Assembly: GCA_903887775.1 (NCBI GenBank)
Contig: CAISRB010000033.1
Location: forward strand, 124,001-188,000
DNA: 64,000 bases
DNA from: an uncultured Bacteroidales bacterium
GTDB lineage: Bacteria; Bacteroidota; Bacteroidia; Bacteroidales; FEN-979
Direction: 5' to 3'
This document shows, piece after piece, positions 14,921 to 41,144 of the stretch. Every line of letters starts with the position of its first letter. Position 1 is the first letter of the stretch. A program made the position numbers and the translations under genes. A model generated the notes under the pieces. That model worked only from the letters and a program-made list of their open reading frames with translations. It did not search any database and was not told the origin of the DNA.

Positions 14921-17504
14921 AGGTTAGTTTAAGTAGAAAATGTCTTCCTCTCTGGAGTATGCCTGTGGGGCTGTTAATACCGTCAGCTGCCTTCGTCCCC
15001 GGATCGTAATAGCTGGTGTTTAAAATATTATTGCATACCAGCTGGGCAGCAAGCCCGGGTACGAGCTTTTTATTTGAATAGCTTATGGTTCCGTTCAGAA
15101 TGGCGGTGGCAGGAAACACCTGGGTGTTCAGGGGTACTGTTGTGCCATCCCCGGTAAGCCGGTTACCGACGAAATTCAGGCGAAGGTTGACGTCAAGCTG
15201 GTGAAAAAACACCTTGTCAGCCCCGATGTTGAACTGGTGGCTTGAAATGTCCCCCACGCGGTTGTCGACATCTCCCGTTTCGGAATAGGTTTGCTTCGGG
15301 TCACAAAAAGTATAGTTGAAATATGCAGAGAATGATTCAATCTGGTAGACCGCATTGGCCTGGACGCCGGTAATACGGAATTTCCCGATATTCTGGTTCT
15401 GTACTTTCCCCCCGTCAACGTTTACCGTACCGACAACGTTGTTGATAAAGTCCTGGTATATCTCAATATCTGCATGAAATGCCTTGTTTAGCCGGAACCC
15501 GGCACTGACTTCGACATTCTGCATATTTTCCGTTTTCAGGGCAGGGTTTGCAATCCTGTTTCCTGCGGCAGAATATTTCGTCCAGTTCGACACATTCATG
15601 ATACCACGGGAGTAAATGGCTTTAAATGTGAACTTTCCGGGTGAATAAACGAGTGCTACCCTGGGGCTTAGTTCACTTCCGAAGCCGTCCTGGTCGCGTA
15701 CCCGGTTGAAGTCGTACCTCAGGCCGAGTGTGATCTTGAAGTTCCTGAATGCCTGGAAAGTTCCCTGGCTGTAAACCCCCAGGTCCCAAACATTAAAATC
15801 ATTCCCTCCTTTCGGAGAAGGCGTGATCACTGCCGAATCCTGGGGCGTTGGCGTGAGGCTGGTATAGTAGGCTCCCTGGAGAGAACTGTTCCTCAGTTCA
15901 AGGCCAGAAACCAGGTCAAACCTTGAAACAGGCCTGTATATCACCTTAAATTCGGTACGCAGTTGTTTTGACAGCTCGTACATGTACAAAGTGGTCCAGT
16001 AGGGCGCCTTGTTGTTGACCAGGTCGGTGAGTTTTTCATTGCCCCGGGCATAGTTGGAAACCGAAACAAACCTTGTTTCATCCGTGACTGCATGAATACG
16101 GTAAGTCGTAAGGTTGGAAAAGAATACTTTTTCACTGATCTGGTTCTCATATTTGGCGAAAAAATAAGAAAGCTGCGGGACCCAGTTAAACCCGTTGTCG
16201 GAGCCTGCAACATAAGTGTCGGTATATTGGGTAGTCCCTCCCCGGCTGTATTTCCAGGTCTGGAACCCGACTGTAAAGTTCCCTATCTTAACTTTTGCAT
16301 TAACCAGCCAGCTGTTGGTTGGATTGGTGAACCCGATCTTATGGCCATTTACGATCTGGTCATAAGCTGATTTATCGAGGTTCCTCGCCGTCTCTGCACC
16401 TAAAGGGGTCAGGGTAAGCTTGCTTGAATCGGGTGAAAGTTGGTAGTAAGGATTTGAGAAAGGAAGCTTATTAGCTATCAGGTATTGTTTTGCACCAGAC
16501 GAAATATCCATGAGCTTGTTATAATCCACCCCGTTGTATACATCCGGATTGTAATCGAAAAATTGCTGGCTCGAGAGATCCATCTCATCGGAATGATAGA
16601 GCCTGCCTGTTACCGTAAAAGAGATATTGCGCCGTTTTCCTGAAACACTCAGATCAACAGTACCCGTGTTATAGGTGCCGTAATCAACACTGGCACTGAC
16701 CCCTATGCTCTTGCCGGGTTTGATGGCATCCACAGAGTTCCTCATGATCACATTAATAACCCCGGCAAATGCATTCGGGCCATACATCGTAGATGCGGGT
16801 CCGTAAATGATTTCCACCCTTTCGATGTTCGAAAGCGGGTATTGACGGTCGATATAGGCCCAGTTCGTCCATAGGTCATTTTCCTCGATCCCGTCAAAAA
16901 GCAGCAGGGTCTTCTCGGTGTTGTTCTGCCTGAAACCTCTCTGGTACACGTTTGCATATTCAGGGCCATAAAAAAGGGTCAGGTCAAAACCCGGCACATC
17001 CTTCAGCAACTCTACCAGGTCATTATAACCACGTTTGACAATGTCATCACGGCTAATCACCACAATGGTGGCCGGTGCCTCATAGATAGATTCGGCCTTC
17101 TTCGAAACGGAGGTTACAACCTGGGCTCCTCCGGCCAGCCTGGTCGAATTCACAAGTCGTATGAATGCCGGGGGGTCAAAAAGATTGGCTTCATACGTAG
17201 GACTTATCTGAAGAAGAAATCCTGTTTCAACAGCTGCCCGGTCATTGGAATCAATTGCAATGTACGTCATCGCAAGCAAGCGGAATGCTTCAACTTTTTG
17301 TTTTTCATTAAACCCTTTATCAAGGCAGGGATTAAGCATCCTGATCACCTCATTGAACTTCCCGTTTTCGTATAATTTTTTTGCGTCACCAAGGGTGACA
17401 TCACTACACTGCTGTGCCATCACGAACGCAGGGAACAGCATACCCACAACGGCCATGAAGCTGATCAGTAAGATAAAAACAAGAGGTAAATGTCGTGTAT
17501 GCAT
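14910..17504 (-). CDS. TonB-dependent receptor with TPR-like N-terminal domain
   Basis: The 864-residue outer-membrane receptor has a signal peptide (1-30, ending FVMAQ), a short helical TPR-like domain (about 35-125; LGDAKKLYENGKFNEVIRML), a plug domain (about 135-245; PATIVVISRDDIV, VEIIYGPASTMYGPNAFAGV) and a 22-strand-type barrel to the C-terminus (LLKLTYDL). Most Bacteroidota SusC-like receptors begin with a carboxypeptidase-regulatory-like domain; this one has the TPR-like segment instead and no SusD partner follows, so glycan uptake of the Sus type is unlikely. It uses TonB energy to import a ligand, perhaps a siderophore, cofactor or oligopeptide. The gene follows the STAND NTPase gene by 45 bp and overlaps the formyltransferase gene, so supply of the ligand and its processing may be coupled. 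Confidence 0.9.
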   Translation of the reverse strand: MHTRHLPLVFILLISFMAVVGMLFPAFVMAQQCSDVTLGDAKKLYENGKFNEVIRMLNPCLDKGFNEKQKVEAFRLLAMTYIAIDSNDRAAVETGFLLQISPTYEANLFDPPAFIRLVNSTRLAGGAQVVTSVSKKAESIYEAPATIVVISRDDIVKRGYNDLVELLKDVPGFDLTLFYGPEYANVYQRGFRQNNTEKTLLLFDGIEENDLWTNWAYIDRQYPLSNIERVEIIYGPASTMYGPNAFAGVINVIMRNSVDAIKPGKSIGVSASVDYGTYNTGTVDLSVSGKRRNISFTVTGRLYHSDEMDLSSQQFFDYNPDVYNGVDYNKLMDISSGAKQYLIANKLPFSNPYYQLSPDSSKLTLTPLGAETARNLDKSAYDQIVNGHKIGFTNPTNSWLVNAKVKIGNFTVGFQTWKYSRGGTTQYTDTYVAGSDNGFNWVPQLSYFFAKYENQISEKVFFSNLTTYRIHAVTDETRFVSVSNYARGNEKLTDLVNNKAPYWTTLYMYELSKQLRTEFKVIYRPVSRFDLVSGLELRNSSLQGAYYTSLTPTPQDSAVITPSPKGGNDFNVWDLGVYSQGTFQAFRNFKITLGLRYDFNRVRDQDGFGSELSPRVALVYSPGKFTFKAIYSRGIMNVSNWTKYSAAGNRIANPALKTENMQNVEVSAGFRLNKAFHADIEIYQDFINNVVGTVNVDGGKVQNQNIGKFRITGVQANAVYQIESFSAYFNYTFCDPKQTYSETGDVDNRVGDISSHQFNIGADKVFFHQLDVNLRLNFVGNRLTGDGTTVPLNTQVFPATAILNGTISYSNKKLVPGLAAQLVCNNILNTSYYDPGTKAADGINSPTGILQRGRHFLLKLTYDL

Positions 17505-27062: not shown

Positions 27063-30000
27063 CTATAGTTCAATTTCTGCAATATTCTCCTTCAGGTCCA
27101 GCAAAGCCAAAAATACTGCCATGGGTATAACAGCCCCGCCCTGGCGGTATTTGTTGTCTTCATAAGTAAACTGAACCGGTTTACCGTTAACTGAAACAGC
27201 TTTAGGAGCAAAATTGTTTTCCTTTACTGCATACCTGAGTGTTAAAGGATGGCCCATAAAATCCAGTGAAGCCGATAAGCCATCCATCGAACGGGAAATT
27301 ACAGGATCAAGAATTACATTTCCCGATTCAACACGCAAACCAAGCAGTCGTGAAACTACAAGGCCGATGTAAATGCCCGGGCCGCTGGAATAAATCCTCC
27401 AACCCCCTTTAAGGGTAATCTTTCCTGTTTTAATTTCTTCGTAAAGTTCATCCGCTTCATAACGATTCCTGAATGTGACATCCGAGCTGCTGTAATAACA
27501 ATTCGATTGCCTTATATCCCCGCAGGGCACAATATCCCTGTAATCCACCGGGATCGCCTGCCGAAGGGCTTTGATAAAAGCATCGGCCCTTCCGGTACGG
27601 GCCTGTGATTCGGCATAACGGATATGTTCGTGCACATACATCAGGCCGATTTCCCGGCCAAAGAAGGTACTGCTTTCGGCTCTCTGGAACAGAGTTTGAA
27701 CTCCGCCTCTGTATTTAAGCGGACGGTCCATCAAACGTGCGCCATCAGGGCCTTTCAGCTGCTGCTCAATCAGGTCAAGGTGCTGCAGGGCCTGTTCTTT
27801 ATTGAAAATTCCACTGATGATGCCGCGGTTCATCGGCAGTATGCTGTAACGGATGCCGGTTCTGCGATCACCGGGGTGAAGCAGTAAACTGATGCGGCGG
27901 TCTTCTTCAAGCAATCCGTACCCTGCAACAACCCCATCCCTGACGAGGTGCCTGTTGAAATCTGCTTTGATCTTCTCACAGATCCCTTTTAATTCTGCAG
28001 CTCTTTTTGCATCGGTTTGCTCATATACCAGGCGGTACTGATCAAAAGCCTGGTAATTCATTTCAACGGTCCAGCTCGATATCATTCGTTGCGCGAGCTC
28101 CCTGCTGACAGGCTGAAGGGAATCATTCCAGTCACCGCCTCCAAACGGGACCAGGGCTGTGCCAGGGATAAATGAATTAATGATCATTTTTATCAGCCTG
28201 TCCACATGTTCGCTCAGCGAAGTCTTTTCGGCATCACCGGCATCATTATCATGATAGTAGGGGAGGATCTCATCCAGGATCTTCAGGTCGCCTGTAACCC
28301 TGATATAGTTGCTGAGGGCAATGATACACCAGTAAAAAACATCTCCATGGGAACTGTCGGCCCGTATGTTGGAATAACTGTCGAACATCCACCATTGAGG
28401 CCAGCCACCGTCGGCATTCTGATTTGAGAAAATGACGCACAGCACCAGACGGGCTTCTGCATATTTTTCCATGCACAGCAGCAGGTCAAACGGGCCCTGT
28501 GCAATGTCGCGGGTTCCCCAGGCGGCTCCGCTGAATTGTTCCAACCCGTAAGGCGTTAAAAAATGGGTGAGCGCATTCATTCCATACCAGGGCAGGATCT
28601 CCCCGATTGCCGCAGTATCTTCCTGCTCCCCTTTCAGTGAGAGGTTTAAGCAAAGGTCCTGCCAGGCATGCTGTGCATCCCGGCAATCGGAGATCCACTG
28701 ATCATCTGCGTTCTCAATTTTAACAACCTTTACAGCAGAACAAACCTCAGCGATGAAGCTCATGCAGAAATCGGATGTCTCCTTGACGCTAAGAACAAAA
28801 AAAGAATCCTGATGGCTTGTATTGTCGATGTAAAGCGCTTCATCTCCGTGTGCTTTATGTTCACCATCACTGCTGTTGACAAGCATCCTGAATTGTGCCT
28901 GGGGAAATTTGCCTGCGATCATGCTGGCTGCTTCAGGCCTGCCTGTATATTCACCCTGACTGGTTCCCGGGATGACTGTCCAACCGTTAAGCCGGTCAAA
29001 ATGATGAGTAATCAAAAGGTCGACATCTCCGCCTTGAAGAACCTTGAAGTCCATATTGACCCGGGGGCTTGTTTTGGATGTCCAGCTGCGGACCTGGAAA
29101 CAATGGTCTTCGTGTTTATAGATCCAGCGGCAGTGGTTTAACCCCATCTCAAAAGCCGAAGGAACCCCGAGCAGAAATTGACGTCCGTTGATACCGACAA
29201 AGATTCTCTGCCCGGTTTCAGGGGCCTGGTTGAATGCTGTCGTACATACCGAAAGGAAGATGTTGAAATTTGTATTGCCCTGGGTGAGGTGGGAATTAAA
29301 AACACCAAAGGCAAAAGATGTAGTGGAAACGATATTTTCATCGGGGGCATAACCTGCCTTCGCCTGCATGATATGGGCATGCGGACGGTCGGCCAGTACT
29401 TCTTTCGCACGCATCACAACGTGCTCGTTGTCTCCGCAGAAAAATGAAAGCAGCCTTCCGTTCTTATATTCGGCATGCCGTCTTTCCCTTCCGAAAAAGC
29501 CATCAAGATCATCCCCGTTCAGGTCATCAACAGGTAAAAAAGCAGAGGTGTTGAAAATATTTCTTTGAGCATTATGCAAGCCGGGTGAAACCCCGGATAG
29601 AACTTCATCATCAAATTCAGCTATCAGACCGGGCAGGGGTTTCAGGTCATCGTCTGAAGTTGCCCCGGCATGGTCAGCAAGATAGGTGGAAACAAAAACA
29701 CTTTGATGATGCTTACCGGAAGGCAGTTCAAATGGTTTCTCCTGCAAGGCAAGCACAGAGGATTCACCGGAATATTCACCCCCAAGCTTATCTGCCAGAA
29801 GGCCTTCCGGGATTCCTGTTTCACGGTATGTTTTACCATAAAACTGCATGCCGTCGACACTAGCGGCTATTGCAGCGTTTTTGCAAGCCATCATAAGCCA
29901 TGGATTGCCTGCCGGTTCTTTCATATTCTGCCGGCAGCATACCACTGAACCATAGTTCGGGTCTTCAAGGATCCTGCGTTCAAGATACTGGCTTACATAA

Positions 30001-30497
30001 TACTCGTTGATGAGACCATCGGTTGCCTGTTTGAGCCCTGCATCCTGCACACAGATCAGATCAAGTTCAACTGTATCCTCAGATGAATTTGTAATATCAA
30101 TGCTCCAGGCCCAGCTCAGGCTTGTTTTTGAAAGCTTCAGTACACACGTATAATCCAGCCCGGCCCAGCTGCCTTCAGTAATAAAGGCATCCTCTCTTAT
30201 ATTGAAACGGCTGTCGCTTTCAGGGCCTGAAAGAGCAGTAAATTCAAAGGGTTCTGTCCTTTTTCTGAGGTACAGGTTTGAACCTGGTCCTGAAAATGCC
30301 GTTGCAGCTTTCAGGCTGATCCTTATCGGACCGGCTTCAATGCACTTAACAGAGCCATTTCCGAGGAAACCAATCGAAAGCCCTTGCGAATTTCTGATCT
30401 CTCCCGGTAAATTCCCTTCAGCCTGACTTGGAACATCAGGCAGGGGCTTAGCCGGAGGGTCATCCCTGTGATTATCCTTTGTATTGTTTACTGCCAT
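27063..30497 (-). CDS. GH94-family disaccharide/oligoglucan phosphorylase, probably 1,2-beta-oligoglucan phosphorylase
   Basis: The 1144-residue protein lacks a signal peptide and so is cytoplasmic. It has the GH94 organisation: an N-terminal beta-sandwich (about 40-590), an (alpha/alpha)6 barrel with SGAAWGTRDIAQGPFD and the catalytic GGDWNDS motif (Asp789-Trp-Asn-Asp792), and a C-terminal beta segment. GH94 enzymes split beta-glucosides with phosphate to give glucose 1-phosphate. Length is that of the 1,2-beta-oligoglucan phosphorylases (about 1,100 residues) rather than of cellobiose phosphorylase (about 800), and a GH144-type gene is in the same operon, so beta-1,2-glucan oligomers are the likely substrate (inference). 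It is the last gene of the operon, 24 bp after the GH35 gene. Confidence 0.85.
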   Translation of the reverse strand: MAVNNTKDNHRDDPPAKPLPDVPSQAEGNLPGEIRNSQGLSIGFLGNGSVKCIEAGPIRISLKAATAFSGPGSNLYLRKRTEPFEFTALSGPESDSRFNIREDAFITEGSWAGLDYTCVLKLSKTSLSWAWSIDITNSSEDTVELDLICVQDAGLKQATDGLINEYYVSQYLERRILEDPNYGSVVCCRQNMKEPAGNPWLMMACKNAAIAASVDGMQFYGKTYRETGIPEGLLADKLGGEYSGESSVLALQEKPFELPSGKHHQSVFVSTYLADHAGATSDDDLKPLPGLIAEFDDEVLSGVSPGLHNAQRNIFNTSAFLPVDDLNGDDLDGFFGRERRHAEYKNGRLLSFFCGDNEHVVMRAKEVLADRPHAHIMQAKAGYAPDENIVSTTSFAFGVFNSHLTQGNTNFNIFLSVCTTAFNQAPETGQRIFVGINGRQFLLGVPSAFEMGLNHCRWIYKHEDHCFQVRSWTSKTSPRVNMDFKVLQGGDVDLLITHHFDRLNGWTVIPGTSQGEYTGRPEAASMIAGKFPQAQFRMLVNSSDGEHKAHGDEALYIDNTSHQDSFFVLSVKETSDFCMSFIAEVCSAVKVVKIENADDQWISDCRDAQHAWQDLCLNLSLKGEQEDTAAIGEILPWYGMNALTHFLTPYGLEQFSGAAWGTRDIAQGPFDLLLCMEKYAEARLVLCVIFSNQNADGGWPQWWMFDSYSNIRADSSHGDVFYWCIIALSNYIRVTGDLKILDEILPYYHDNDAGDAEKTSLSEHVDRLIKMIINSFIPGTALVPFGGGDWNDSLQPVSRELAQRMISSWTVEMNYQAFDQYRLVYEQTDAKRAAELKGICEKIKADFNRHLVRDGVVAGYGLLEEDRRISLLLHPGDRRTGIRYSILPMNRGIISGIFNKEQALQHLDLIEQQLKGPDGARLMDRPLKYRGGVQTLFQRAESSTFFGREIGLMYVHEHIRYAESQARTGRADAFIKALRQAIPVDYRDIVPCGDIRQSNCYYSSSDVTFRNRYEADELYEEIKTGKITLKGGWRIYSSGPGIYIGLVVSRLLGLRVESGNVILDPVISRSMDGLSASLDFMGHPLTLRYAVKENNFAPKAVSVNGKPVQFTYEDNKYRQGGAVIPMAVFLALLDLKENIAEIEL

Positions 30498-30521
30498 CTT
30501 TATCGAATTGATTCAGGTAAT

Positions 30522-32951
30522 TCAGCTTATTACAATATTAAGAACCATTTCACTTTTGTGTTTATGGCTGAATAAAAATGAGATACGTTTTTCGTCACGG
30601 ACCATTTTAACGGTTTTACCCCTCAGGGTAGCGGATATGATTTTATTCACATTTGCTCCTTCAAATACTATCTCCCCGGCAAGGTCGCGGTTGCCGTACA
30701 AAGTGATCTCTATCTGGCCGTAAATCTCTTCAATCCCCAGAATATCGGAAGTGCTGTGCAGTATCTTTATCCCGTCAGAAATTTCCAGGCACACAGGAGT
30801 AAGGATACCATACAAGGCCGGCCATGTAATCTCATCCTTCGAGTAAGGAATAGCGATGGCTTCCCCACTCAGGGGATGGGTATAGCTTACTTTCCCGGCC
30901 TGCTCTTCATTGTAGTAATTTCCTATGAAAAGCACTGCAGAACCTGCTGTGAATCTTTCTCTCACGGCTAAATTGGTATTCCCGCATGAGGCCAGCCTGA
31001 GCCTGGCACCTGACTTCTTCAGGATCGCTTCATACACGGGTTTATGCCCTTCCGTATCAAACCCGATCCAGGTTCCCAGGTGAAGCAGGGATCCGTTTTG
31101 AACCGGTTTTAGAAATCCACAGACAGTCCCATTAATGGTCCTGGCGATAACCTCGGCTCCTGAAAGCGATCCTTCTGAATAAATGATCTGAGGATTCGAG
31201 CACTTGATATCTTTAAATTCAAAAATGTCAACCAGGGGGGAATCAATATTCTCAACTCCCGATGGCGTCACTTCAATTGCATCGCGAATGATCGTACAGG
31301 GTTTTTGCGACATCTCCCGGTCGGGCAGGTATGGGAAAAGAACAATGTTGCCTCCGGCTTGTGTATAATCAACGATGGTTTGCTGGTCCCTTGCATTCAT
31401 CTCATCAGTGCTGAAGCACCATACCTGTTTATACTGAAGGAGCTCATCGGCCGAAGCCTGGCTGAGATCAAGCATATCATAATCGATATTGAGGATCAGC
31501 AGGGCTTTAAGCAATCCGTCAAAGTATGCTGGTCTGCGGATGGCCGAAGGGGTAAATTTAAGTTCACAACTCGCGTCAAGTGGCCTTTCCAGCTCGGTGG
31601 CGTAATACGGCGGGTAGAAAAGGATACAGATCTCAGCTTTACGCTTTGCATTGACGATAAGGTTTTCGGATGTTTTAATGATTTTACTCATTCGTTTGAC
31701 CAATGGGAAAGCGCTGCCGCGCTCGGCTTCGGCATTGAGTGGGCTGAACCAGTAAAAACTTTCCCCTGAATAGCCTTTGCGTGCGGGGTTGCGGCCCTGC
31801 GAGAACATATAGTAGTTCCAACCGGTTAAACCGTTGGCAATGCTTGCCTTGTAGAAGAGTTCCATCTCGCGGGGGTTAGTCACCACGTGATATTCGCGGG
31901 AGCCGCACTGGAACTCGGCAGCAAACATCGGTTTGTGGCCCTGCATTGCAAAAGTGATGTCATTGATAATGCGGTCATCATGCAAATTGCGGTAAGACAG
32001 GAATTCAGGAATATGATCGACACCGAATATGATCTCGCTCTTTTCGCCGAAAAGATCTTCGTACATGGTGATGTTGACCGGGAATTCATAACCGTTCCCA
32101 TAGATCCAGCCGGGAAGATTGTGATACAGGGGGACTTTTACGCCCCTTTCCCTCGCCATCCCGCTGAGCATCCTGAGGTAGTCTCCGTAATAAGTTCTCC
32201 AGAAACAATGCCATTCATAATCACGGCCGCGGTCACCCTTTGATGCATAGGGAAGTTTATCGTCGGGAGGAAGCTCAACATCAGAGAAGTCTTTATATTC
32301 AGTTCCCCACAAATGATTTATTTCTGCAATACCTGTGAATTTCCCGGCTAAGTATGAAATGAAGCGTTCTTTCACCGCATTCCCGTAATCCCCCTGTTTT
32401 GCCAGCCAGGAAAAAACTCCGATCTCATTGCAAACCTGCATCATGATGATCGGACCGCCAGCCGATAGTTCACGTTCAGCTATGAAGGGCATGATCTGGT
32501 CATACCACAGGGCTGTCTTTTCCAGGTATTTCTCATTAAACAGGCTCACTCCGTCGCTTGGAAAAATTTCGCCTCTTCGGTTGCGCATTTTGACTTCATC
32601 GCGATATTGCTCCAGGAACCAATCGGGCAGCCCGGCTCCCCTGAACTCAGCCAGGATGAATGGTCCGGGTTTTACTATGCAATTCAAATTGTGGTCCTGG
32701 CATCGCTGAAGCCAGCCTTTGAGATCACGTTCGGGACATGTTGAGCCGTCAAAATCAAAAACCGATTCCTCCGGTTCATGCCATGCCCAGGGAATATATG
32801 TGCTCACTGTTGTTAAACCGGCCTCTTTTGCTTCGTCGAGATGCTTGTCCCATAAGCCGCGCTTGATCCTGAAATAATGGATCTCTCCTGAATTGAGAAA
32901 TACCTTTTTGTTATCGAGATAAAAATTGTTTCCTTTAATGCTGAAGTTCAT
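30522..32951 (-). CDS. GH35-family enzyme, possibly a beta-1,2-glucosyltransferase rather than beta-galactosidase
   Basis: The 809-residue protein has a GH35 TIM barrel at its N-terminus (GEIHYFRIKRGLWDKHLDEA), acid/base Glu176 in QVCNEIG and nucleophile Glu346 in AAEFQCGS, followed by beta-sandwich domains. There is no signal peptide, so it acts in the cytoplasm. Most GH35 enzymes are beta-galactosidases, but a GH35 protein from an Ignavibacterium beta-1,2-glucan gene cluster was shown to transfer glucose among beta-1,2-gluco-oligosaccharides; the same neighbourhood here suggests that role (inference). Both catalytic motifs deviate from the common QVENEYG/TEFW forms, which supports a different specificity. 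It lies 24 bp before GH94 and 42 bp after the transporter. Confidence 0.85.
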   Translation of the reverse strand: MNFSIKGNNFYLDNKKVFLNSGEIHYFRIKRGLWDKHLDEAKEAGLTTVSTYIPWAWHEPEESVFDFDGSTCPERDLKGWLQRCQDHNLNCIVKPGPFILAEFRGAGLPDWFLEQYRDEVKMRNRRGEIFPSDGVSLFNEKYLEKTALWYDQIMPFIAERELSAGGPIIMMQVCNEIGVFSWLAKQGDYGNAVKERFISYLAGKFTGIAEINHLWGTEYKDFSDVELPPDDKLPYASKGDRGRDYEWHCFWRTYYGDYLRMLSGMARERGVKVPLYHNLPGWIYGNGYEFPVNITMYEDLFGEKSEIIFGVDHIPEFLSYRNLHDDRIINDITFAMQGHKPMFAAEFQCGSREYHVVTNPREMELFYKASIANGLTGWNYYMFSQGRNPARKGYSGESFYWFSPLNAEAERGSAFPLVKRMSKIIKTSENLIVNAKRKAEICILFYPPYYATELERPLDASCELKFTPSAIRRPAYFDGLLKALLILNIDYDMLDLSQASADELLQYKQVWCFSTDEMNARDQQTIVDYTQAGGNIVLFPYLPDREMSQKPCTIIRDAIEVTPSGVENIDSPLVDIFEFKDIKCSNPQIIYSEGSLSGAEVIARTINGTVCGFLKPVQNGSLLHLGTWIGFDTEGHKPVYEAILKKSGARLRLASCGNTNLAVRERFTAGSAVLFIGNYYNEEQAGKVSYTHPLSGEAIAIPYSKDEITWPALYGILTPVCLEISDGIKILHSTSDILGIEEIYGQIEITLYGNRDLAGEIVFEGANVNKIISATLRGKTVKMVRDEKRISFLFSHKHKSEMVLNIVIS

Positions 32952-32963
32952 TTACTCTTTTTT

Positions 32964-32980
32964 GGTGACTGGTGACTGGT
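32964..32980. repeat. GGTGACT heptamer repeat between transporter and GH35 genes
   Basis: Two and a third copies of GGTGACT fill most of the 42-bp gap between the two genes. It is too short to be more than a trace of the heptamer-type repeats seen elsewhere in the window. Confidence 0.7.
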
Positions 32981-32993
32981 TAGCAGTGACAAT

Positions 32994-35054
32994 TCACAGT
33001 TCACTATTCAGTGCTCTTTTTTTAAGAAGCTCCTTGATCTCATGGCTTCGTTTTTCGGTGAGGGAGTAACGAAGGACAAAGAAAATTGAAAAAATGCTTA
33101 ACAGCAATGGAAGCCCGATCTCAACAACCCGCATCATTAAAAGCGTATAAGGTGTTTGCTGGGTGAGCGGCCTGATGCTGCTTTCGATTGAGCCGAGCTC
33201 TTTTTCGAGAGAATCGGGTGATGATTTTGTGTTCAGGTTTACAAGGCGGTTATTAACGCCTGTTACCTCCTCCATAAGCTTCTTATAGTGTTCTTTGCTG
33301 TTCTTTGTTCCCAGGGATTTATCTTCCAGCCGCGACCGAAGCTCAAATGAGTTCATCCTTGCTTTTACGATCTTCGTCTGGAGTGTAAGCGGGATTGCTT
33401 GTTTTATGAGGCTGTCAATCCTGGAGGATTGGGCGACTGCCCCTGGTTTTTCAAAACAAGATTGCAGCTGTTCCAGCGAACCAATGGTTGCTTTTGTAGT
33501 GGAGATGGCGTTTAACAATTCATTTTTCTTCTGGTTCGGATATTCATGCATATTCAGGTTCGTCTCATCCTGGTTTTTAAGAGATTCTTTTCCAAGGTAA
33601 GTGAGATAGTCTTTCGACTCATTGAGTGCTTCAGCGTTACGGGTTTTAGTGTTTTCAAGCCACTCCTTATTTGCGCTGGCAATGCCATGGTAGCCTTTCC
33701 AGAACTGAACGGTGCTGCGCATTTCCCTTACACTGCCCTGTATTTTATCGACTTTTGTGACCTGGGTTTCGTCAAACATGGTAAATACGATCAACACACC
33801 AGTTACAAAGCTGGCCAGGGCAGATCCCATTTTGATGAACCACCAGAATACCGAGTAATAACTGCCCTCTGAACGATACCCGGTCTTTAATTCATCTTCA
33901 TCACAGATATCGCCCACCATGGAAGATCCAAGTGTGAAGAAAAACAGCATTCCGGCAGAAAGCAGAACCGTGGGGATGATGATCAGGTAGGGATGTGTAG
34001 GGTTATAGCATATAATTTTAGATAGTTGTGCAAGACACATGAGTAAAATAGAAATGGTCAGGGTATTTCTTTTACCCAGTTTCGGGCTGATCCAGTTGAG
34101 GGGAAATACTGCCAGCACCCCGGTGATAGCCCAGATCATCCCATTTATCGCGAGCAGGTAAGCTCCGGCAACCTTATCTCCTCCGAAAACATAAAAAATA
34201 GGGATATATGACCCTATCAGCTGGACGAAATTAAAGCCCATAGCCAGCGTGAAGATCGTCAGCGTCAGCATGATAAAGTTCCTGTTGGTGGTTGTATGCT
34301 TCATGTCTTGCCAGAAGGGTGTTTTTTCATGCTTTGCAGCTTTTACAAAACCCGGTTCACGTAATTTGAAAAACCACCAGACTGAAAGCGGGATGAGGAA
34401 AGCAGCGATCATCAGGGAAACATAACGCATGCCATCGGCTTCATTTCCTCCGGGACCTTTGAAAATTTCCATGCTGGCGAGGGCAAAAAGCCAGGGTGTG
34501 CCCATGGCAAAAAGATTGCCGACAAAGCTCTTCGCGCTGAACAGCCGGGTACGTTCGTGGTAATCGGTGGTCATCTCCATGCCAAGGGCGCCGTGAGGGA
34601 TCTCGAAAAGATTAACGGCTGTAAAAAACAGGAGAAGGGAAAAAAGAATATAGCAAAGCTGAAACCACTGAAAACCCGTATCCGAAGGGAACCACGTTCG
34701 CACCATATCCCCTTTTGGGATCCACCAGATGACCACAAAAAAAACTGCAACGAGTATTCCGCCAACCAGCAAATAGGGTCGCCGGCGTCCCCAGCGGGTC
34801 CTGGTATTATCAGAAAGATGGCCGATAAAAGGATCAGAAAGGGCATCCCATAAACGAGGGACAATCAAAATGGCACCCAGCCAGAACGCACTCAGCCCCA
34901 GGCTTATATTGCCCATCAATCCCACAAGTATCCCCGCTATATTGAAGAGGGCAATAGGGATAATGCCCCCGGCACCATATGCGGCTAATTGTGAAAAGTG
35001 AATCTGGTGTTCCGGTTTTGCATTCTGGTCCTTTACTGTTTCTTGCCCCATCAT
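32994..35054 (-). CDS. GPH-family sugar:cation symporter with large extra loop
   Basis: The 686-residue membrane protein shows the glycoside-pentoside-hexuronide signature (IVPRLWDALSDPFIGHLSDNTRTRWGRR) and about 12 membrane helices. It should import oligosaccharides from periplasm to cytoplasm with Na+ or H+. Normal family members have 450-500 residues; the excess is a hydrophilic, coiled-coil-like stretch at about 430-632 between the last two helices (MFDETQVTKVDKIQG onward), which by normal topology lies in the periplasm. The N-terminus has tandem ATGs (35052 and 35049). It sits between the secreted glycan enzymes and the cytoplasmic ones, exactly where an importer is needed in this operon, which has no SusC/SusD genes. 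Confidence 0.9.
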   Translation of the reverse strand: MMGQETVKDQNAKPEHQIHFSQLAAYGAGGIIPIALFNIAGILVGLMGNISLGLSAFWLGAILIVPRLWDALSDPFIGHLSDNTRTRWGRRRPYLLVGGILVAVFFVVIWWIPKGDMVRTWFPSDTGFQWFQLCYILFSLLLFFTAVNLFEIPHGALGMEMTTDYHERTRLFSAKSFVGNLFAMGTPWLFALASMEIFKGPGGNEADGMRYVSLMIAAFLIPLSVWWFFKLREPGFVKAAKHEKTPFWQDMKHTTTNRNFIMLTLTIFTLAMGFNFVQLIGSYIPIFYVFGGDKVAGAYLLAINGMIWAITGVLAVFPLNWISPKLGKRNTLTISILLMCLAQLSKIICYNPTHPYLIIIPTVLLSAGMLFFFTLGSSMVGDICDEDELKTGYRSEGSYYSVFWWFIKMGSALASFVTGVLIVFTMFDETQVTKVDKIQGSVREMRSTVQFWKGYHGIASANKEWLENTKTRNAEALNESKDYLTYLGKESLKNQDETNLNMHEYPNQKKNELLNAISTTKATIGSLEQLQSCFEKPGAVAQSSRIDSLIKQAIPLTLQTKIVKARMNSFELRSRLEDKSLGTKNSKEHYKKLMEEVTGVNNRLVNLNTKSSPDSLEKELGSIESSIRPLTQQTPYTLLMMRVVEIGLPLLLSIFSIFFVLRYSLTEKRSHEIKELLKKRALNSEL

Positions 35055-35098
35055 AGATATCCCTTAAGGTTAATGTATTTCAATACGGTACTACTCAT

Positions 35099-38000
35099 TT
35101 AATAATAAATCACCACCTCTGCAGGACAAGATTTTACTGAAATCTCCTTCTCCGTAAAACCATTCTGCCCTTTACCGTTCACTGTCACTCTGAGAGGCAG
35201 TTTCGAAGAGTTAAAATTTTTAATCCTGATTCCGTTGGGAGGAAGTTTCAGATCACCGGAAATGGAAAAGATGTACCTGTCTTTGTCTTTTTTTATTGAA
35301 TAGGAGATTTCCCCGTAATAAGTCGGAAGATGTTCTACCGACATTCCCGCCGGTGAATCGATCCAGTCCTGGTAAAGCGCCGCGGCTAAAACAAGAGATT
35401 GGTCATACTCATTCTCATAAACAAACATAGCTCTGATTGCATTGATAAAATCGCTACCAACCCAGGTGTGGGGCATGTCGCCTATATACCGTGGAGCACG
35501 GTAGTCTTTCCACACGACTTCCGCCCAGTCATTCCATCCGGGAGGGCGCTGGTCATGCAGGAAAAATGCAATCAACTCATGCGCTCTTTCAGGTTGGTCT
35601 AAAAGTATAAATGAACCGATCAAACGATTTTCATAAGGAGTGTAATTGATCCAGTCATTCTTTCCGTCCCTGCGGTTTTTGAAGAATTCAAAATACTTAT
35701 CAAACGTGTTAAAAACCTGGGGTTTTGGTAAATTGATCAGTTCATTGCAGGGTGTTAAGGCGATAGTGGTTGATGTGGCATCAAAATCACCAAGCTCGGC
35801 ACAACCGGGGATGTAATTTATTTTCTTTGTTTTCATTGCAAGCTGCAATGAGTTGTACAGGTTTTCCTTAAACGCATCGCGAACTTTTGAAATTCTTTCA
35901 AAGGATTCCTTTTCGCCAAGAATCTTCTGGATCTCAGCAGCATCTTTCAATCCTTTCATCGTAAAGAAATCATCCCAGTAAGAGTGCATTGGTTTTGCCG
36001 AATATCCTTCGTGGCTGATCGATTCGGTTACAAGTCCGTAGCAGGCACGCACACTGTCGCTGCCGTTTTTAAAGTGGTCAGTTGATTGTTCTGCGATCAG
36101 GGATTCGATATAATCAACAGCCTTGAGTACATTTTTATTCTTTGACCTGAGAAAAACTGTATCCTGTGTAAAGTTGAAATATTCGCGGATCAGGTAGATC
36201 ATCTCCCCGTGACTGTCGTTTTCGGGAACCGGATCAGGCCCCCTGAAGTCTACAACACAGGGGACTTTCCCGTTCCCGAACTGGTGGGAAGTGTACCATT
36301 CAATAAAATCTTTTACTTCATTTACAATACCTGATTTTAACAGTGCAGATGAGGTCAATGCTCCGTCGCGTATCCAGCTCCGTTCATATGAACGAGATCC
36401 GGGCTGAATGCCTGCTTTATCCCTGTTGATGAGTATGTATGCAAGGTTTGATTTGTAAGTATTTACAATCCTGTTTGCTGATGGAGGTAAATTAAATTTA
36501 ATATGCCCGACTTTCGCTTTCCAGAATTCAGTTGATGCGTTGGATTCTTTGAAAACATCTTCCGGGCTGAGTTTTTCATTTCCTGTTTGATTACCATAAA
36601 ACGGAACTACTACAAAGAATCCGGTTTGTTCACCAGGATTTAAGTGAAGTGAATATTTTATTACTCCATTGGCCATCCCGCCGGGATCAACGGCAGATTT
36701 TTTCAGAGGAATATTTCCTTTACGCAGAAGGTCAACAATATTTCCTTCATCAAAACTTCCTGCCCCGAAAGAGTCATACTTTTTCAGAGGAAGAACTGCT
36801 TTATTACCGATGATTAAAAACCTGCCATCTTCTTCTGTTATTGAATTTATTTTGCCACCACCACCGGTCAGATTCAGGAACTGGTAATATGGATTTACCT
36901 GGTAAGGGCGGATCAGCAGATAAAATTCAAAATCTTTTGGCTTACCCGACAGATTTTGAAATGAATAGCTGATGTTGAGCCTGGAATTTTTATTCGGCTC
37001 TCCGCTTGCAGTTACCCCGCAAACGAATTTCAGATCCCTGCAGTTCCAGCTGACAGATGGTACAAAACTAAATTCGCTTTTATCTTCAGAAGACCCTAAT
37101 GACTGAACTGATTTAACATTGCTCCAGTTATAAAGTGAATCACCGACTTTTATCATGGGTTCTATTGAAAATGCAGCCTTGTCAACTTCAACCATTCCGT
37201 CTTCGTTGATCAGGGCTTCCTTTACATCATTATTAACACCGGTAATTGTCCAGTATGAAGCCTGCTTTGAAAAGTATCGCGGATAATTTCCTGAAGGTGA
37301 ATTTTCAGCTGCGTAAATCAGGAAGTCATTCGGGGTCATCGAATTTCGAATATCAAGGAATTTTACTTCAGATATACCGAATCCTTTTTCTGAATTGCTG
37401 CTTGCGAGATCTATCTTAAGATATTTTGCTTCTGCTTCAGGCAATCTTATAAAACTGACATCGTTCTGATTTGACTGGACTGAATAAACTTTCTCCCATT
37501 TTTTTTGATCCTCCGATAAAAGAATATCATAACTTTTTGCAGAATTATTTTTCAGCCAGTTGATCTGCAATCCTCCGAATTCCCGGCGGGTCTTAAAATC
37601 AAAGATTACATTCTGATTTTTTACTCCCTCGCATTGCCAGGATGTTTCCTTTGAATTATCGACAATAAGATCCGGTGAATGATTTTTCAAAGAGGCAGAA
37701 GCCGTCACTGTTGGTGTCGGGTATGAATGCGATTCAGGAGGAAGTGGTTCAAACTTAAGATCATCGATCCAGACAGTTCCTTTACCGCCAACAAAAGATG
37801 AAATTGTAAATTCAATCCTGTCGATGCGTTTTAAATTTTGATCGGTTGTAGGGCCCCATGCAAAGTTGATATGTCTTTTCCTAATCCGGATTTTTTTCCA
37901 TTCAGCGGGAAAATCGTAATTGTGGTTATTAACCCACCAGACATTATTTCCCGTACTGTCAATAAATTTTATTTCAAAATTATTGGAAGGGGATTCAGCT

Positions 38001-38284
38001 TTAACGAAAAATGTAAATTCGTAGTTCTCGGGGAGATCGATCGGGAACAATTTCTGTATTCCGCCGTAACCGGTTCCATTTGGAAAATCATAATCCAACC
38101 GGATTGCATTGCCTGTTAATCCTTTGTCATTGGATAATTTAAGATTAACGCCATCGGATCGGATGAAACTCCAGCCATCTTTGTTTTCAAACGCATCAAG
38201 CGATTTGACCTGTGCAATTACAAATGTTGTTGAAATAACAAACAAGACGGCTAAGGCAATTCTATTTATACTTAAATGTTTCAT
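35099..38284 (-). CDS. Secreted CBM- and discoidin-containing (alpha/alpha)6 glycosidase-like protein
   Basis: The 1061-residue protein has a signal peptide (1-24, ending VIAQ), a jelly-roll carbohydrate-binding domain (about 25-180; GYGGIQKLFPIDLPENYEFTF), an F5/8 discoidin (CBM32-like) domain (about 190-310; SWQCEGVKNQNVIFDF), a beta-sandwich (about 320-600), an (alpha/alpha)6 barrel (about 610-970) with SWIRDGALTSSALL, and a short C-terminal beta domain. The barrel recalls glycogen-debranching and GH15/63-type enzymes, but I cannot place it in a GH family. Candidate catalytic acids include the Asp in WIRDG and Glu in NDWAEVVW. It is second in the operon after the endo-glucanase, so it probably binds and trims the same glycan in the periplasm or outside. 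Sequence is visibly more AT-rich than its downstream neighbours. Confidence 0.75.
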   Translation of the reverse strand: MKHLSINRIALAVLFVISTTFVIAQVKSLDAFENKDGWSFIRSDGVNLKLSNDKGLTGNAIRLDYDFPNGTGYGGIQKLFPIDLPENYEFTFFVKAESPSNNFEIKFIDSTGNNVWWVNNHNYDFPAEWKKIRIRKRHINFAWGPTTDQNLKRIDRIEFTISSFVGGKGTVWIDDLKFEPLPPESHSYPTPTVTASASLKNHSPDLIVDNSKETSWQCEGVKNQNVIFDFKTRREFGGLQINWLKNNSAKSYDILLSEDQKKWEKVYSVQSNQNDVSFIRLPEAEAKYLKIDLASSNSEKGFGISEVKFLDIRNSMTPNDFLIYAAENSPSGNYPRYFSKQASYWTITGVNNDVKEALINEDGMVEVDKAAFSIEPMIKVGDSLYNWSNVKSVQSLGSSEDKSEFSFVPSVSWNCRDLKFVCGVTASGEPNKNSRLNISYSFQNLSGKPKDFEFYLLIRPYQVNPYYQFLNLTGGGGKINSITEEDGRFLIIGNKAVLPLKKYDSFGAGSFDEGNIVDLLRKGNIPLKKSAVDPGGMANGVIKYSLHLNPGEQTGFFVVVPFYGNQTGNEKLSPEDVFKESNASTEFWKAKVGHIKFNLPPSANRIVNTYKSNLAYILINRDKAGIQPGSRSYERSWIRDGALTSSALLKSGIVNEVKDFIEWYTSHQFGNGKVPCVVDFRGPDPVPENDSHGEMIYLIREYFNFTQDTVFLRSKNKNVLKAVDYIESLIAEQSTDHFKNGSDSVRACYGLVTESISHEGYSAKPMHSYWDDFFTMKGLKDAAEIQKILGEKESFERISKVRDAFKENLYNSLQLAMKTKKINYIPGCAELGDFDATSTTIALTPCNELINLPKPQVFNTFDKYFEFFKNRRDGKNDWINYTPYENRLIGSFILLDQPERAHELIAFFLHDQRPPGWNDWAEVVWKDYRAPRYIGDMPHTWVGSDFINAIRAMFVYENEYDQSLVLAAALYQDWIDSPAGMSVEHLPTYYGEISYSIKKDKDRYIFSISGDLKLPPNGIRIKNFNSSKLPLRVTVNGKGQNGFTEKEISVKSCPAEVVIYY

Positions 38285-38297
38285 AAAATAAAATTTT

Positions 38298-39683
38298 TTA
38301 TTTCACATATGCGAAGCCCAGCCTGTTTAAACCTTTTTGGATTATCGGATCTTTCATTACATAATTCCAGACCAGGCCAGTCCTGAAATTTTCAATCATG
38401 ATCAGCATCGGGCCCTCATCAATGCCTAAAAAATCATCATCAAACCATTTGGCTGTTAAATTGAATGCATCATAATATCCGTATTTCCCCCAAAGTTTTT
38501 TTCCTAACTTTTTATTTAAAGATTTTATCGTCGGCAGAACTATCTCAGGGGCAAAAGGTAATGAAGAAAGGGAAGCGTAAGGGGCTATGGTCCCATCGTC
38601 AAAATAGTTGTATTCAGGGCCACTGGTTCCCCTCCCGGCATAACCTAAAAACTTTTTACCATCAAAATTATATTTGTCAGGAGGCCCGTCACTTGCTGTT
38701 ACACCCCAGCAAAGCGAGTCATAACCTGTCCAGCCTTTGGGGTTTTCTGTTGCATATTGCCGCTGAACATATGTTGCACGCCGGGAATTTTCAAAATAAT
38801 CAATCCCTTTTTCCTTCATGTATTTATCAGCTATACCCCGGAAATCTAAAAATGCCTGGGAAAACTGATGACCAAACAACGGAGGGAAAGCAACATGCGA
38901 CAGACCTTTGTACGGAGTATCCCATTGATAGGTTTTTAGCCATGAATTGTAACTTTGTTCAGCATTATTCATTCCGCTGCCGGCTGCTAAGATATATAAG
39001 AAGAGAGCTTCATTATACCCGAACCAGCCATAATCTTCCAATCCTTTCTCGGGAGACCAGGCCATCGAAATCGTAAAAGCATATTTGCTCGAAGCCGGTA
39101 ATACCATAAAATTCCAGTCAATTCTGTCAAGTAGCTTTGCCGCGAGCAGACGTATCTGTTTTTCAGATTCATTTTCCTTGTTGTAATAGTTCCGGGCAAA
39201 AATGATCCCCATCATCAGCAAGCCGGTATCGACGGAAGAAAGTTCACAGTTCCACTCGCGTGTGCCGGAATCCATTTTCAGGAAATGGTAATAAAACCCC
39301 TTATAACCTGTAACATCTTTGGCTGTACTTTGAACAGAGCTGAGAAAAAACCTCATGATTTTGAGGGTGATACCGGCAGCCTGTTCACGGCTTATCCAGT
39401 TCCTTTCAGCCCCGATTGCAAAACATGGGATTCCAAAACCGGTCGCTGCTATGCTGCAAGGCGCCTTGCTTAAAGTGCGGTCTTTTACAATTCCCTTTAC
39501 CGGATGTTGTTCATTCAGGAAAAAAAGAAGCGTTTTATGCTGAATCGAATCGAGCATCCGCTCTTCAGAGGAAGTCAGATTATAAATTACTTTCCCATGA
39601 GAACTGAATACAGTGTTCTGCGGATGAGCTGCAATTGCTGCCAGCGTAAGAACTGCGGATATTAATAGGTTACTGATTTTCAT
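38298..39683 (-). CDS. Secreted GH144-type endo-beta-1,2-glucanase (glucoamylase-like fold)
   Basis: The 461-residue protein has a signal peptide (1-22) and the PF10091 glucoamylase-like (alpha/alpha)6 fold with the conserved words SIAATGFGIPCFAIG, GYKGFYYHFLKMDSG, ELSSVDTGLLMMG, GYNEALFLYILA, HQFSQAFLDFRGIAD, YFENSRRATYVQRQY, DDGTIAPYASLSSLPFAPE and GIDEGPMLIMIENFR. Enzymes of GH144 with this pattern cut beta-1,2-glucan internally to sophoro-oligosaccharides. It has no lipobox, so it is periplasmic or secreted. First gene of the five-gene operon; the next starts 13 bp after its stop. The family also contains relatives of untested activity, so the exact linkage cut is an inference supported by the GH94 and GH35 neighbours. 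Confidence 0.85.
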   Translation of the reverse strand: MKISNLLISAVLTLAAIAAHPQNTVFSSHGKVIYNLTSSEERMLDSIQHKTLLFFLNEQHPVKGIVKDRTLSKAPCSIAATGFGIPCFAIGAERNWISREQAAGITLKIMRFFLSSVQSTAKDVTGYKGFYYHFLKMDSGTREWNCELSSVDTGLLMMGIIFARNYYNKENESEKQIRLLAAKLLDRIDWNFMVLPASSKYAFTISMAWSPEKGLEDYGWFGYNEALFLYILAAGSGMNNAEQSYNSWLKTYQWDTPYKGLSHVAFPPLFGHQFSQAFLDFRGIADKYMKEKGIDYFENSRRATYVQRQYATENPKGWTGYDSLCWGVTASDGPPDKYNFDGKKFLGYAGRGTSGPEYNYFDDGTIAPYASLSSLPFAPEIVLPTIKSLNKKLGKKLWGKYGYYDAFNLTAKWFDDDFLGIDEGPMLIMIENFRTGLVWNYVMKDPIIQKGLNRLGFAYVK

Positions 39684-40379
39684 ACAATTAGTTTTAAAGG
39701 CTTTTATTCATAGCTGAAATAATGCAGAATCCACATCTGCCGTTTCTGATGCGTCCATTCATTGTATATCCCTATCTGTATACTCTGGCAGAGATATGAT
39801 AAGTGGTTGAGGTCGCTGTAAAGATATACGTGATCAGGGTCTCGTTATAACCTCTCCCAATTTATCGGATTCTTTCTTTTTACATGTTGTAAAATAGTAA
39901 AGATTACTCCCTGCAAGGATTATTACCAGCAGTAAGAAAGGTACTAAAGTTGCGAAAACCCATACAATTAAACGATGTTTTGAAATATAACAGCAAGATA
40001 CAATGCATTAAAAAAATAAGCATATAAACTGTTCGCACAAATACATCATCAAAATGATTTGGGTTCAGGTGCTAAGTCAATGCTAATTCAATCTATAAAT
40101 AAAACGTTTAAAATATTGACAATCAAAAGTAATATTTTTTTATTTTTTTTGAAAAAAATCTTTTTGAAGTGTTCCGACGAAAGTTCAAAATTGCATTATA
40201 AACTCCACCAGGTTGTTGTCGCATTCAAGATCCAGTCTTTTTCGTAACAATCAGAATAGCTATAAGACAGCTGTGCAGGGTTTTCTTCATTGGATCAGTT
40301 CATCAAAACGGAAGTCGAAAATACTAAAAATTCATAACTTTGACGGATCAGCCATTACCTGACCTGACAAACATTCAAC
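39684..40379. other. AT-rich intergenic region between glycan operon and SDR gene
   Basis: This 696-bp gap separates two divergent transcripts. It holds a -7 box for the SDR gene (40335-40342), a 7-of-8 match TATCTTTA on the minus strand at 39826-39819 that could serve the glycan operon with a leader of about 135 nt, and homopolymer T/A runs near 40130-40155. On the minus strand an open frame ending at 39834 encodes about 40 residues with one hydrophobic helix (VFATLVPFLLLVIILAG) and a basic tail, but it has no ATG, GTG or TTG start; it may be a gene remnant. No regulator gene for the operon is present. Confidence 0.6.
40335..40342 (+). promoter_or_regulatory. -7 box (TAACTTTG) of the SDR gene
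   Basis: TAACTTTG is a full consensus match, 37 bp before the ATG at 40380; no clear -33 TTG is seen. Confidence 0.6.
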
Positions 40380-41144
40380 ATGATTATGAAGAAGATCGTA
40401 CTTGTAACCGGAGCCACTTCGGGCTTCGGAAAAGCCATTGCAATAAAGTTTGCCGTCAACGGCTGCAAATTGATAATTACCGGCCGGAGAAACGATAGGT
40501 TGAAGGATTTAAAAATGAAACTGGAGCAGGAATATAAAACGGAAGTTCTGGCGCTTTGCTTTGATGTTAGAAATTCCGCTGAGGTTGAAAAAAACATACA
40601 CTCCCTGCCTGAAAACTGGAAAGTCATAGATGTGCTGGTTAATAATGCCGGGCTTGCAGTTGGAATGCATCCGGTGCATGAAGGTATACTGGAAGACTGG
40701 GAACGAATGATAGATACAAATATGAAAGGATTACTTTACATGACCCGTTTTGTAGCCCCTTCAATGGTTGCCCGAAGGAAAGGACATATCATCAATATTG
40801 GTTCCATTGCCGGGAAGGAGGTATACCCTAATGGAAATGTCTACTGCGGCTCAAAATTCGGGGTGGATGCCATAACCAGGGGTACCCGTATTGACCTTGT
40901 CCCTTATAACATCAAAGTAACCCAGATTTTGCCCGGGGCTGTAAATACCGAGTTCTCGATTGTCAGGTTTAAAGGTGATAAGGAAAAGGCTGATAGTATG
41001 TACAAGGGATTCATTCCTTTAACGGCCGAAGATGTTGCGGATGCAGTTTACTATGTGGCTTCTTTACCAGATCACGTGAATGTCAATGAACTGATATTAA
41101 TGCCCACCGCCCAGGCGTCATCCATGCATTTCCATAAGGTTTAA
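40380..41144 (+). CDS. Short-chain dehydrogenase, YdfG-like 3-hydroxy acid dehydrogenase
   Basis: The 254-residue cytoplasmic enzyme has the classical SDR features: cofactor motif TGATSGFGKA (about 10-19) with an Arg pair after strand beta-2 (TGRRNDR) typical of NADP(H) preference, NNAG (about 90), and the catalytic Ser-Tyr-Lys set in INIGSIAGKEVYPNGNVYCGSKFGVD. The C-terminal ELILMPTAQ tail resembles YdfG, which oxidises serine, L-allo-threonine and 3-hydroxy acids with NADP+. A second ATG at 40386 would drop two residues. It precedes two acyl-CoA ligases, but the 136-bp gap with its own promoter-like sequence argues against one operon. Confidence 0.9.
   Translation: MIMKKIVLVTGATSGFGKAIAIKFAVNGCKLIITGRRNDRLKDLKMKLEQEYKTEVLALCFDVRNSAEVEKNIHSLPENWKVIDVLVNNAGLAVGMHPVHEGILEDWERMIDTNMKGLLYMTRFVAPSMVARRKGHIINIGSIAGKEVYPNGNVYCGSKFGVDAITRGTRIDLVPYNIKVTQILPGAVNTEFSIVRFKGDKEKADSMYKGFIPLTAEDVADAVYYVASLPDHVNVNELILMPTAQASSMHFHKV

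What the first reader, a model, noticed from the sequence alone, without database searches (positions are those of the whole stretch)
27063..39683. Probable beta-1,2-glucan operon without SusC/SusD
GH144-type endo-glucanase, a CBM protein, GPH importer, GH35 and GH94 are in order from outside to inside of the cell. Bacteroidota normally use SusC/SusD for glycans; here none is present, so the substrate may be small or made in the periplasm, such as osmoregulated or cyclic beta-1,2-glucans.
Basis: partly seen in the sequence, partly recalled or inferred. Interest (0 to 1): 0.62.

Follow-up and report, generated by a model that had tools for sequence, protein, structure and literature searches.

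The report
Half of a split sugar-eating gene cluster
This is the inner (periplasm-to-cytoplasm) half of a standard gene cluster with which Bacteroidales bacteria eat beta-1,2-glucan; in this genome its outer-membrane half was deleted in place, leaving readable scars, while another contig of the same genome carries a complementary outer half.

Summary
The five genes are real and correctly named: GH144 beta-1,2-glucanase, a 1061-aa CBM32 protein ("P4"), GPH symporter, GH35 and GH94. The GH35 is an Ignavibacterium-type sophorose-using glucosyltransferase (all checked catalytic and recognition residues kept). The GH94 is a 1,2-beta-oligoglucan phosphorylase. So "beta-1,2-glucan operon" holds. The absence of SusC/SusD is a local deletion and no evidence for a small or periplasmic substrate. 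Three congeneric genomes have, between the same flanking genes, regulator-SusC-SusD-surface lectin-outer GH144-GH3 in front of the same five genes. In G007 that gap is 13.6 kb; here it is 0.7 kb, made of collinear remnants: regulator 3' end plus susC promoter region, and a stop-ridden piece of the outer GH144. The same genome carries, on another contig, GH144-T9SS, SusC, SusD, lectin, GH43/CBM32 and GH3, absent from that site in four congeners. No GH94 exists elsewhere in the genome, so the two loci look complementary. P4 is not merely a CBM protein: it is predicted as carbohydrate-binding domains plus a GH15/GH94-like (alpha/alpha)6 enzyme with invariant acidic residues and no assigned catalytic family. 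It is the most novel part. Function in trans is inferred, not shown.

The parts
38298..39683 (-). GH144 beta-1,2-glucanase, first gene of the operon; N-terminal hydrophobic (signal-like) stretch by eye, no lipobox seen
   Evidence: PF10091 1.2e-73; best solved relative XcSGL 8xul 359 bits, also CpSGL 5gzh; candidate base E147 and general acid E225 motifs kept (roles from PMC12102758)
35099..38284 (-). P4: N-terminal CBM4/11-like domain, CBM32 (about 193-303), beta-sandwich, (alpha/alpha)6 barrel with invariant acidic residues; putative glycoside hydrolase of unassigned family, signal-like N-terminus
   Evidence: Pfam F5_F8 only; AlphaFold pLDDT 82.5, pTM 0.81; Foldseek to GH94/GH116/GH15 at 9-12% identity; invariant columns
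32994..35054 (-). GPH-type cation symporter with a roughly 200-aa helical insertion between TM11 and TM12
   Evidence: PF13347 1.5e-66; insertion present in full-length orthologs, shorter in three; AlphaFold pLDDT 73.8
30522..32951 (-). GH35 of the IaSGT type: cytosolic sophorose-donor beta-1,2-glucosyltransferase
   Evidence: 7vkx/7vkw 509 bits; E102, N175, E176, E346 (=E343) and R352 (=R349) kept
27063..30497 (-). [quoted passage not shown]
   Evidence: 5h3z 567 bits; SOGP_N, SOGP_2nd and SOGP_4th domains; only GH94 found in the genome
39703..39855 (-). decayed remnant of the outer-membrane GH144 gene that precedes the intact GH144 gene in relatives; a stop codon splits it
   Evidence: tblastn up to 1.5e-12, 52-65% aa over 39-52 residues; 51 bits vs 25 maximum in 100 shuffles; translation
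39961..40246 (-). remnant: 3' end of the lost 952-aa Y_Y_Y regulator gene plus the regulator-susC intergenic (promoter) region
   Evidence: blastn 6.7e-18 to G005 and 4.7e-20 to G006; gene order
39994..40050 (-). conserved block in the former susC promoter region (TGATGTATTtGTGCG ... TTGTATcTTG), candidate regulatory site
   Evidence: four-genome alignment; pattern search
40285..40460 (.). former junction between the SDR gene start and the lost regulator's 5' region, still collinear with congeners
   Evidence: 80% nt to G005

Best explanation
The operon is the inner module of a beta-1,2-glucan polysaccharide utilization locus. Its outer module (Y_Y_Y regulator, SusC, SusD, LamG surface protein, outer-membrane GH144, GH3) was removed in place by at least three deletions. 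SHOWN by sequence: gene identities, the orthologous complete loci, collinear remnants, intact ORFs with low dN/dS, and a second GH144-SusC-SusD-GH3 locus on contig C11 of the same genome. INFERRED: outer enzymes and SusC/SusD from C11 bring beta-1,2-glucan oligosaccharides into the periplasm. There GH144 (and P4) shorten or trim them. The GPH symporter imports short sophoro-oligosaccharides. GH94 phosphorolyses them to glucose-1-phosphate and sophorose, and GH35 uses sophorose as a glucosyl donor.
For: Complete orthologous loci in 36 Bacteroidota loci (Ignavibacteria excluded). Same flanks in G005-G007: SDR and AMP-ligase genes on the 5' side; purL-like gene on the 3' side, with the 313-aa gene too in G007. 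Gap between SDR and GH144 genes 13.6 kb in G007 vs 0.7 kb here, filled by three collinear remnants. Window nested among SusCD-bearing loci, SH-aLRT 84-94. dN/dS 0.05-0.18. C11 locus; its SusC/SusD are 65-68% identical to those beside the P4 cluster in L053, and its SusD 66% in L045. Site lacks this locus in four congeners. One GH94 in genome.
Against: Cooperation between C11 and this operon is not demonstrated; C11 lacks the conserved block found here. dN/dS covers the whole divergence from congeners, not only the time since the deletion. C11 carries an extra GH43/CBM32 gene whose role is unclear. Nesting support is moderate. Twelve other loci lack SusC/SusD nearby and show no remnants of SusC, SusD or outer GH144, so the inner module may also work without a linked pair.
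Confidence: 0.8

Rival explanations
1. A SusC/SusD-independent operon specialised on small or periplasm-generated beta-1,2-glucans. GH144 and P4 work in the periplasm on the cell's own or porin-diffusing glucans.
For: Several lineages carry the inner module without a linked SusC/SusD and without remnants; GH144 and P4 have signal-like N-termini.
Against: In this genome the absence is a deletion scar and SusC/SusD with GH144 exist elsewhere. No cyclic-glucan synthase found by PF10091/PF17167. OpgGH-type synthesis was not tested.
Confidence: 0.12
2. A dying operon: after losing regulator and uptake genes, the five remaining genes are no longer used and are on the way out.
For: Regulator, SusC, SusD, LamG, outer GH144 and GH3 at this locus are all gone.
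Against: All five ORFs intact, pairwise dN/dS 0.05-0.18 as in complete loci; promoter-region block retained; recent-looking exchange in GPH and GH94; second locus supplies the missing functions.
Confidence: 0.06
3. Assembly or binning artefact: a SusC/SusD half was dropped or the contig mis-joined.
For: The genome is a 33-contig assembly.
Against: The 0.7-kb gap holds diverged, collinear remnants with stop codons in the expected order; a mis-join would not make these. Flanks keep synteny on both sides. C11's neighbouring genes are 83-87% identical to congeners, so C11 belongs to the genome.
Confidence: 0.02

Closest known systems
Ignavibacterium album IaSGT/SGL gene cluster (Kobayashi et al. 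2022, PMC8861115)
   Same: GH144, GH94 and GH35 (IaSGT) together in a beta-1,2-glucan cluster; IaSGT key residues identical; related Ignavibacteria loci also carry P4
   Different: The published cluster has an ABC importer, a TonB receptor and a second GH144; here a GPH symporter, no outer-membrane parts and P4. Figure S1 of that paper was not available, so P4 in I. album itself was not checked
GH144 polysaccharide utilization loci of Bacteroidetes (Lapebie et al. 2019, PMC6499787)
   Same: Orthologous loci are SusC/SusD-GH144-GH3 PULs
   Different: Here the outer half is deleted; that paper suggested most susC/D-less loci are fragments of PULs, and this is a case where the scar can be read
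XcSGL/CpSGL endo-beta-1,2-glucanases (GH144)
   Same: Whole-length similarity and catalytic motifs
   Different: Endo or exo mode untested; GH144 also includes a sophorose-releasing exo-enzyme (PMC8861115)
LpSOGP (5h3z), 1,2-beta-oligoglucan phosphorylase
   Same: 567 bits over nearly the whole length, SOGP-specific domains
   Different: Activity untested
GH15/GH94/GH116 (alpha/alpha)6 enzymes, for P4
   Same: Predicted fold and the SWIRDG motif seen in GH15
   Different: 9-12% identity in Foldseek; no Pfam catalytic family in the window copy, only weak hits in some orthologs

Membership tests
GH144 (SGL clan) | Clan general acid (CpSGL E211 / XcSGL E239) | tested here: met
   GYNE motif, E225, aligned with 8xul; numbering of the 8xul chain not reconciled
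GH144 (SGL clan) | Candidate base (CpSGL E142) | tested here: met
   E147 in ELSSVDT, aligned with 8xul
GH144 (SGL clan) | Activity on beta-1,2-glucan | not testable with these tools
   needs an enzyme assay
IaSGT-type GH35 | E176 acid/base, E343 nucleophile, N175 in place of the GlmA Asp | tested here: met
   E176, E346, N175
IaSGT-type GH35 | E102 and R349 substrate recognition; no signal peptide | tested here: met
   E102, R352; N-terminus MNFSIKGNNFYLDN
SOGP (GH94) | SOGP_N, SOGP_2nd, SOGP_4th domains and GGDWND motif | tested here: met
SusC/SusD polysaccharide utilization locus | Adjacent susC/susD pair | tested here: not met
   Absent at this locus; lost by deletion with remnants. Pair present on C11
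[quoted passage not shown]
   PF10091 hits only the two GH144 genes; PF17167 only the window gene
GH15 (for P4) | Significant match to the GH15 profile | tested here: not met
   PF00723 not matched by the window copy, weak (best 0.0027) in 5 of 36 orthologs; profile-profile E 0.01, low probability
GH15 (for P4) | Paired acid and base residues | tested here: inconclusive
   Invariant D771 and E922 (D770, E921 numbering) sit in GH15-like positions by eye only

The most novel reading that the evidence does not exclude
P4 founds an uncatalogued (alpha/alpha)6 glycoside hydrolase family dedicated to beta-1,2-glucan use, kept with GH144 whether the importer is GPH (Bacteroidota) or ABC (Ignavibacteria). 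It may act on linkages or ends that GH144 cannot cut, for instance the alpha-1,6 bond that closes Xanthomonas-type cyclic glucohexadecaose.
Probability: 0.3. Interest if true: 0.6.

Novelty: new variant of a known kind. Interest (0 to 1): 0.42.

Why it matters
It is a worked example of why a CAZyme cluster without SusC/SusD should not be read as a different uptake strategy: the pair can be deleted locally while a complementary pair sits elsewhere in the genome. It also gives a clean natural case of a PUL split into two unlinked, apparently complementary halves, and points to P4 as a conserved, uncharacterised enzyme-like protein in beta-1,2-glucan pathways.

Tried and rejected
Considered that the SDR/AMP-ligase neighbours belong to the operon: rejected, they are divergent and are conserved flanks in congeners. 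Considered that other SusC/SusD-less loci are the same kind of scar: no remnants of SusC, SusD or outer GH144 in 2.5 kb upstream. Searched for the retained promoter block at C11: none. Profile comparison of P4 with four GH15 proteins aligned the SWIRDG motif but was too weak to fix catalytic residues. L079 and L086 were first mis-scored or truncated and were set to unknown; Ignavibacteria TonB proteins first scored as SusC were excluded from the SusC/SusD count. A paper search for PUL decay gave nothing relevant.

Full report
OBSERVATION. The five ORFs are present at the stated coordinates, all on the minus strand, 13-44 bp apart. Pfam, NCBIfam and PDB comparisons give, in transcription order: PF10091/GH144 (38298-39683), an F5/8C (CBM32) protein here called P4 (35099-38284), a GPH/MFS_2 symporter (32994-35054), GH35 (30522-32951) and SOGP-type GH94 (27063-30497). 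GH144 and P4 begin with hydrophobic signal-like stretches; GH35 and GH94 do not (sequence read by eye).

SUBSTRATE. GH144 is closest among solved proteins to XcSGL (359 bits) and keeps the general-acid motif (E225) and the candidate base (E147) (roles from PMC12102758). GH35 matches the beta-1,2-glucosyltransferase IaSGT over 670 residues (509 bits) and keeps E102, N175, E176, E346 (=E343) and R352 (=R349); archaeal GlmA and galactosidases score far lower. GH94 matches LpSOGP (567 bits) with SOGP-specific domains; cellobiose-type phosphorylases score under 45 bits. Three independent enzymes thus point to beta-1,2-glucan. Activities were not measured.

WHY THERE IS NO SUSC/SUSD. P4 was used to find 80 genome loci. 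In 36 Bacteroidota loci with enough upstream sequence, SusC, SusD and usually a LamG-type surface protein and a second, Ig-fused GH144 precede the same inner genes. Pfam names for the closest one, L029, are TonB receptor, SusD, LamG/Big_5, Big_5-GH144 and GH3. In three congeneric genomes (G005, G006, G007) this complete locus sits between the same flanks as in the window: SDR and two AMP-ligase genes on the 5' side, the purL-like gene on the 3' side, plus the 313-aa gene in G007. The regulator there is a 952-aa Y_Y_Y protein. In G007 the distance from the SDR gene start to the GH144 gene start is 13,563 bp; in the window it is 696 bp. Those 696 bp align collinearly with three separate pieces of the congeners' interval: 40460-40285 (SDR start and regulator 5' side), 40246-39961 (regulator 3' end and the regulator-susC intergenic region), and 39855-39703 (interior of the outer GH144 gene). 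The last piece reads GYNETLITYIFTATSTTYHISARVYR*GYTMNGRIRNG against GYNETLVTYIMAGASPTHPVSAAVYQQGYAQNGTIKNG in L029 and scores 51 bits against at most 25 in 100 dinucleotide shuffles. So at least three deletions removed the outer half. A tree of P4 nests the window among SusC/SusD-bearing loci with moderate support (SH-aLRT 84-94).

IS THE REST STILL IN USE? All five ORFs are intact; pairwise dN/dS with three congeners is 0.05-0.18, like the comparisons among the complete loci. This spans all divergence, so it cannot date the loss. A block in the former susC promoter region (window 39994-40050) is still recognisable across four genomes, which would fit continued use of that promoter, although the regulator gene beside it is gone.

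A COMPLEMENTARY LOCUS. Contig C11 of the same genome carries, at about 64.0-76.7 kb: GH144 with a type IX secretion tail, SusC, SusD, LamG protein, GH43/CBM32 and GH3. Its SusC and SusD are 65-68% identical to those that stand directly before the P4 cluster in L053, and its SusD 66% to that in L045, which ties them to the same substrate. Its flanking genes lie 14.1 kb apart here but 2.7-5.9 kb apart in four congeners where both are on one contig, so the locus is absent there; the full-length T9SS GH144 was otherwise found only in two genomes of other families. C11 has no importer or phosphorylase; the window has the only GH94 in the genome. The simplest reading is that an acquired outer module took over and the old one was lost. 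The order of events and the cooperation are inferred.

P4. In 36 orthologs its barrel region is the most invariant part. The AlphaFold model (pLDDT 82.5, pTM 0.81) matches GH94, GH116 and GH15 structures at 9-12% identity. No catalytic Pfam family is assigned to the window copy. In Ignavibacteria it stands with GH144, GH35 and an ABC importer instead of GPH. A catalytic role is likely but unproven.

OTHER SUSC/SUSD-LESS LOCI. Twelve further loci lack the pair nearby, by at least seven changes on the tree, without remnants of SusC, SusD or outer GH144 in 2.5 kb upstream. Whether those genomes have the pair elsewhere was not tested. Published work already suspected that most susC/D-less loci are PUL fragments (PMC6499787); this window is a case where that can be read from the DNA.

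VERDICT. An ordinary kind of pathway in an unusual state: the inner half of a split beta-1,2-glucan PUL. New variant of a known kind.

Noticed in passing
window 32994-35054: The GPH symporter and its orthologs carry a roughly 200-aa helical insertion between TM11 and TM12 (about 100 aa in L030, L060, L102); by standard MFS topology this loop would be periplasmic.
   Followed up: partly
window 27063-35054: Mosaic divergence: GPH is 96% identical to L029 (dS 0.20) while GH94 is 89% to L031 (dS 0.34) but 76% to L029 (dS 1.37), which suggests recombination within the operon.
   Followed up: partly
L059, L100 (Ignavibacteria loci): The P4-GH35-GH144 set occurs with an ABC sugar importer instead of GPH.
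   Followed up: partly
G000 contig C11, about 64.0-76.7 kb (L125, L133): PUL present in this genome and missing at the same site in four congeners; contains GH43/CBM32 with unclear role in beta-1,2-glucan use.
   Followed up: partly
window 14910-17504: Lone TonB receptor (864 aa) followed by a formyltransferase-like gene, apparently unrelated to the operon.
   Followed up: no
G000 contig C19:106915-107238 and relatives, e.g. L028: A conserved roughly 1161-aa protein with GH116/GDE/GH78-like barrel, distantly similar to P4, in most genomes of the family.
   Followed up: no
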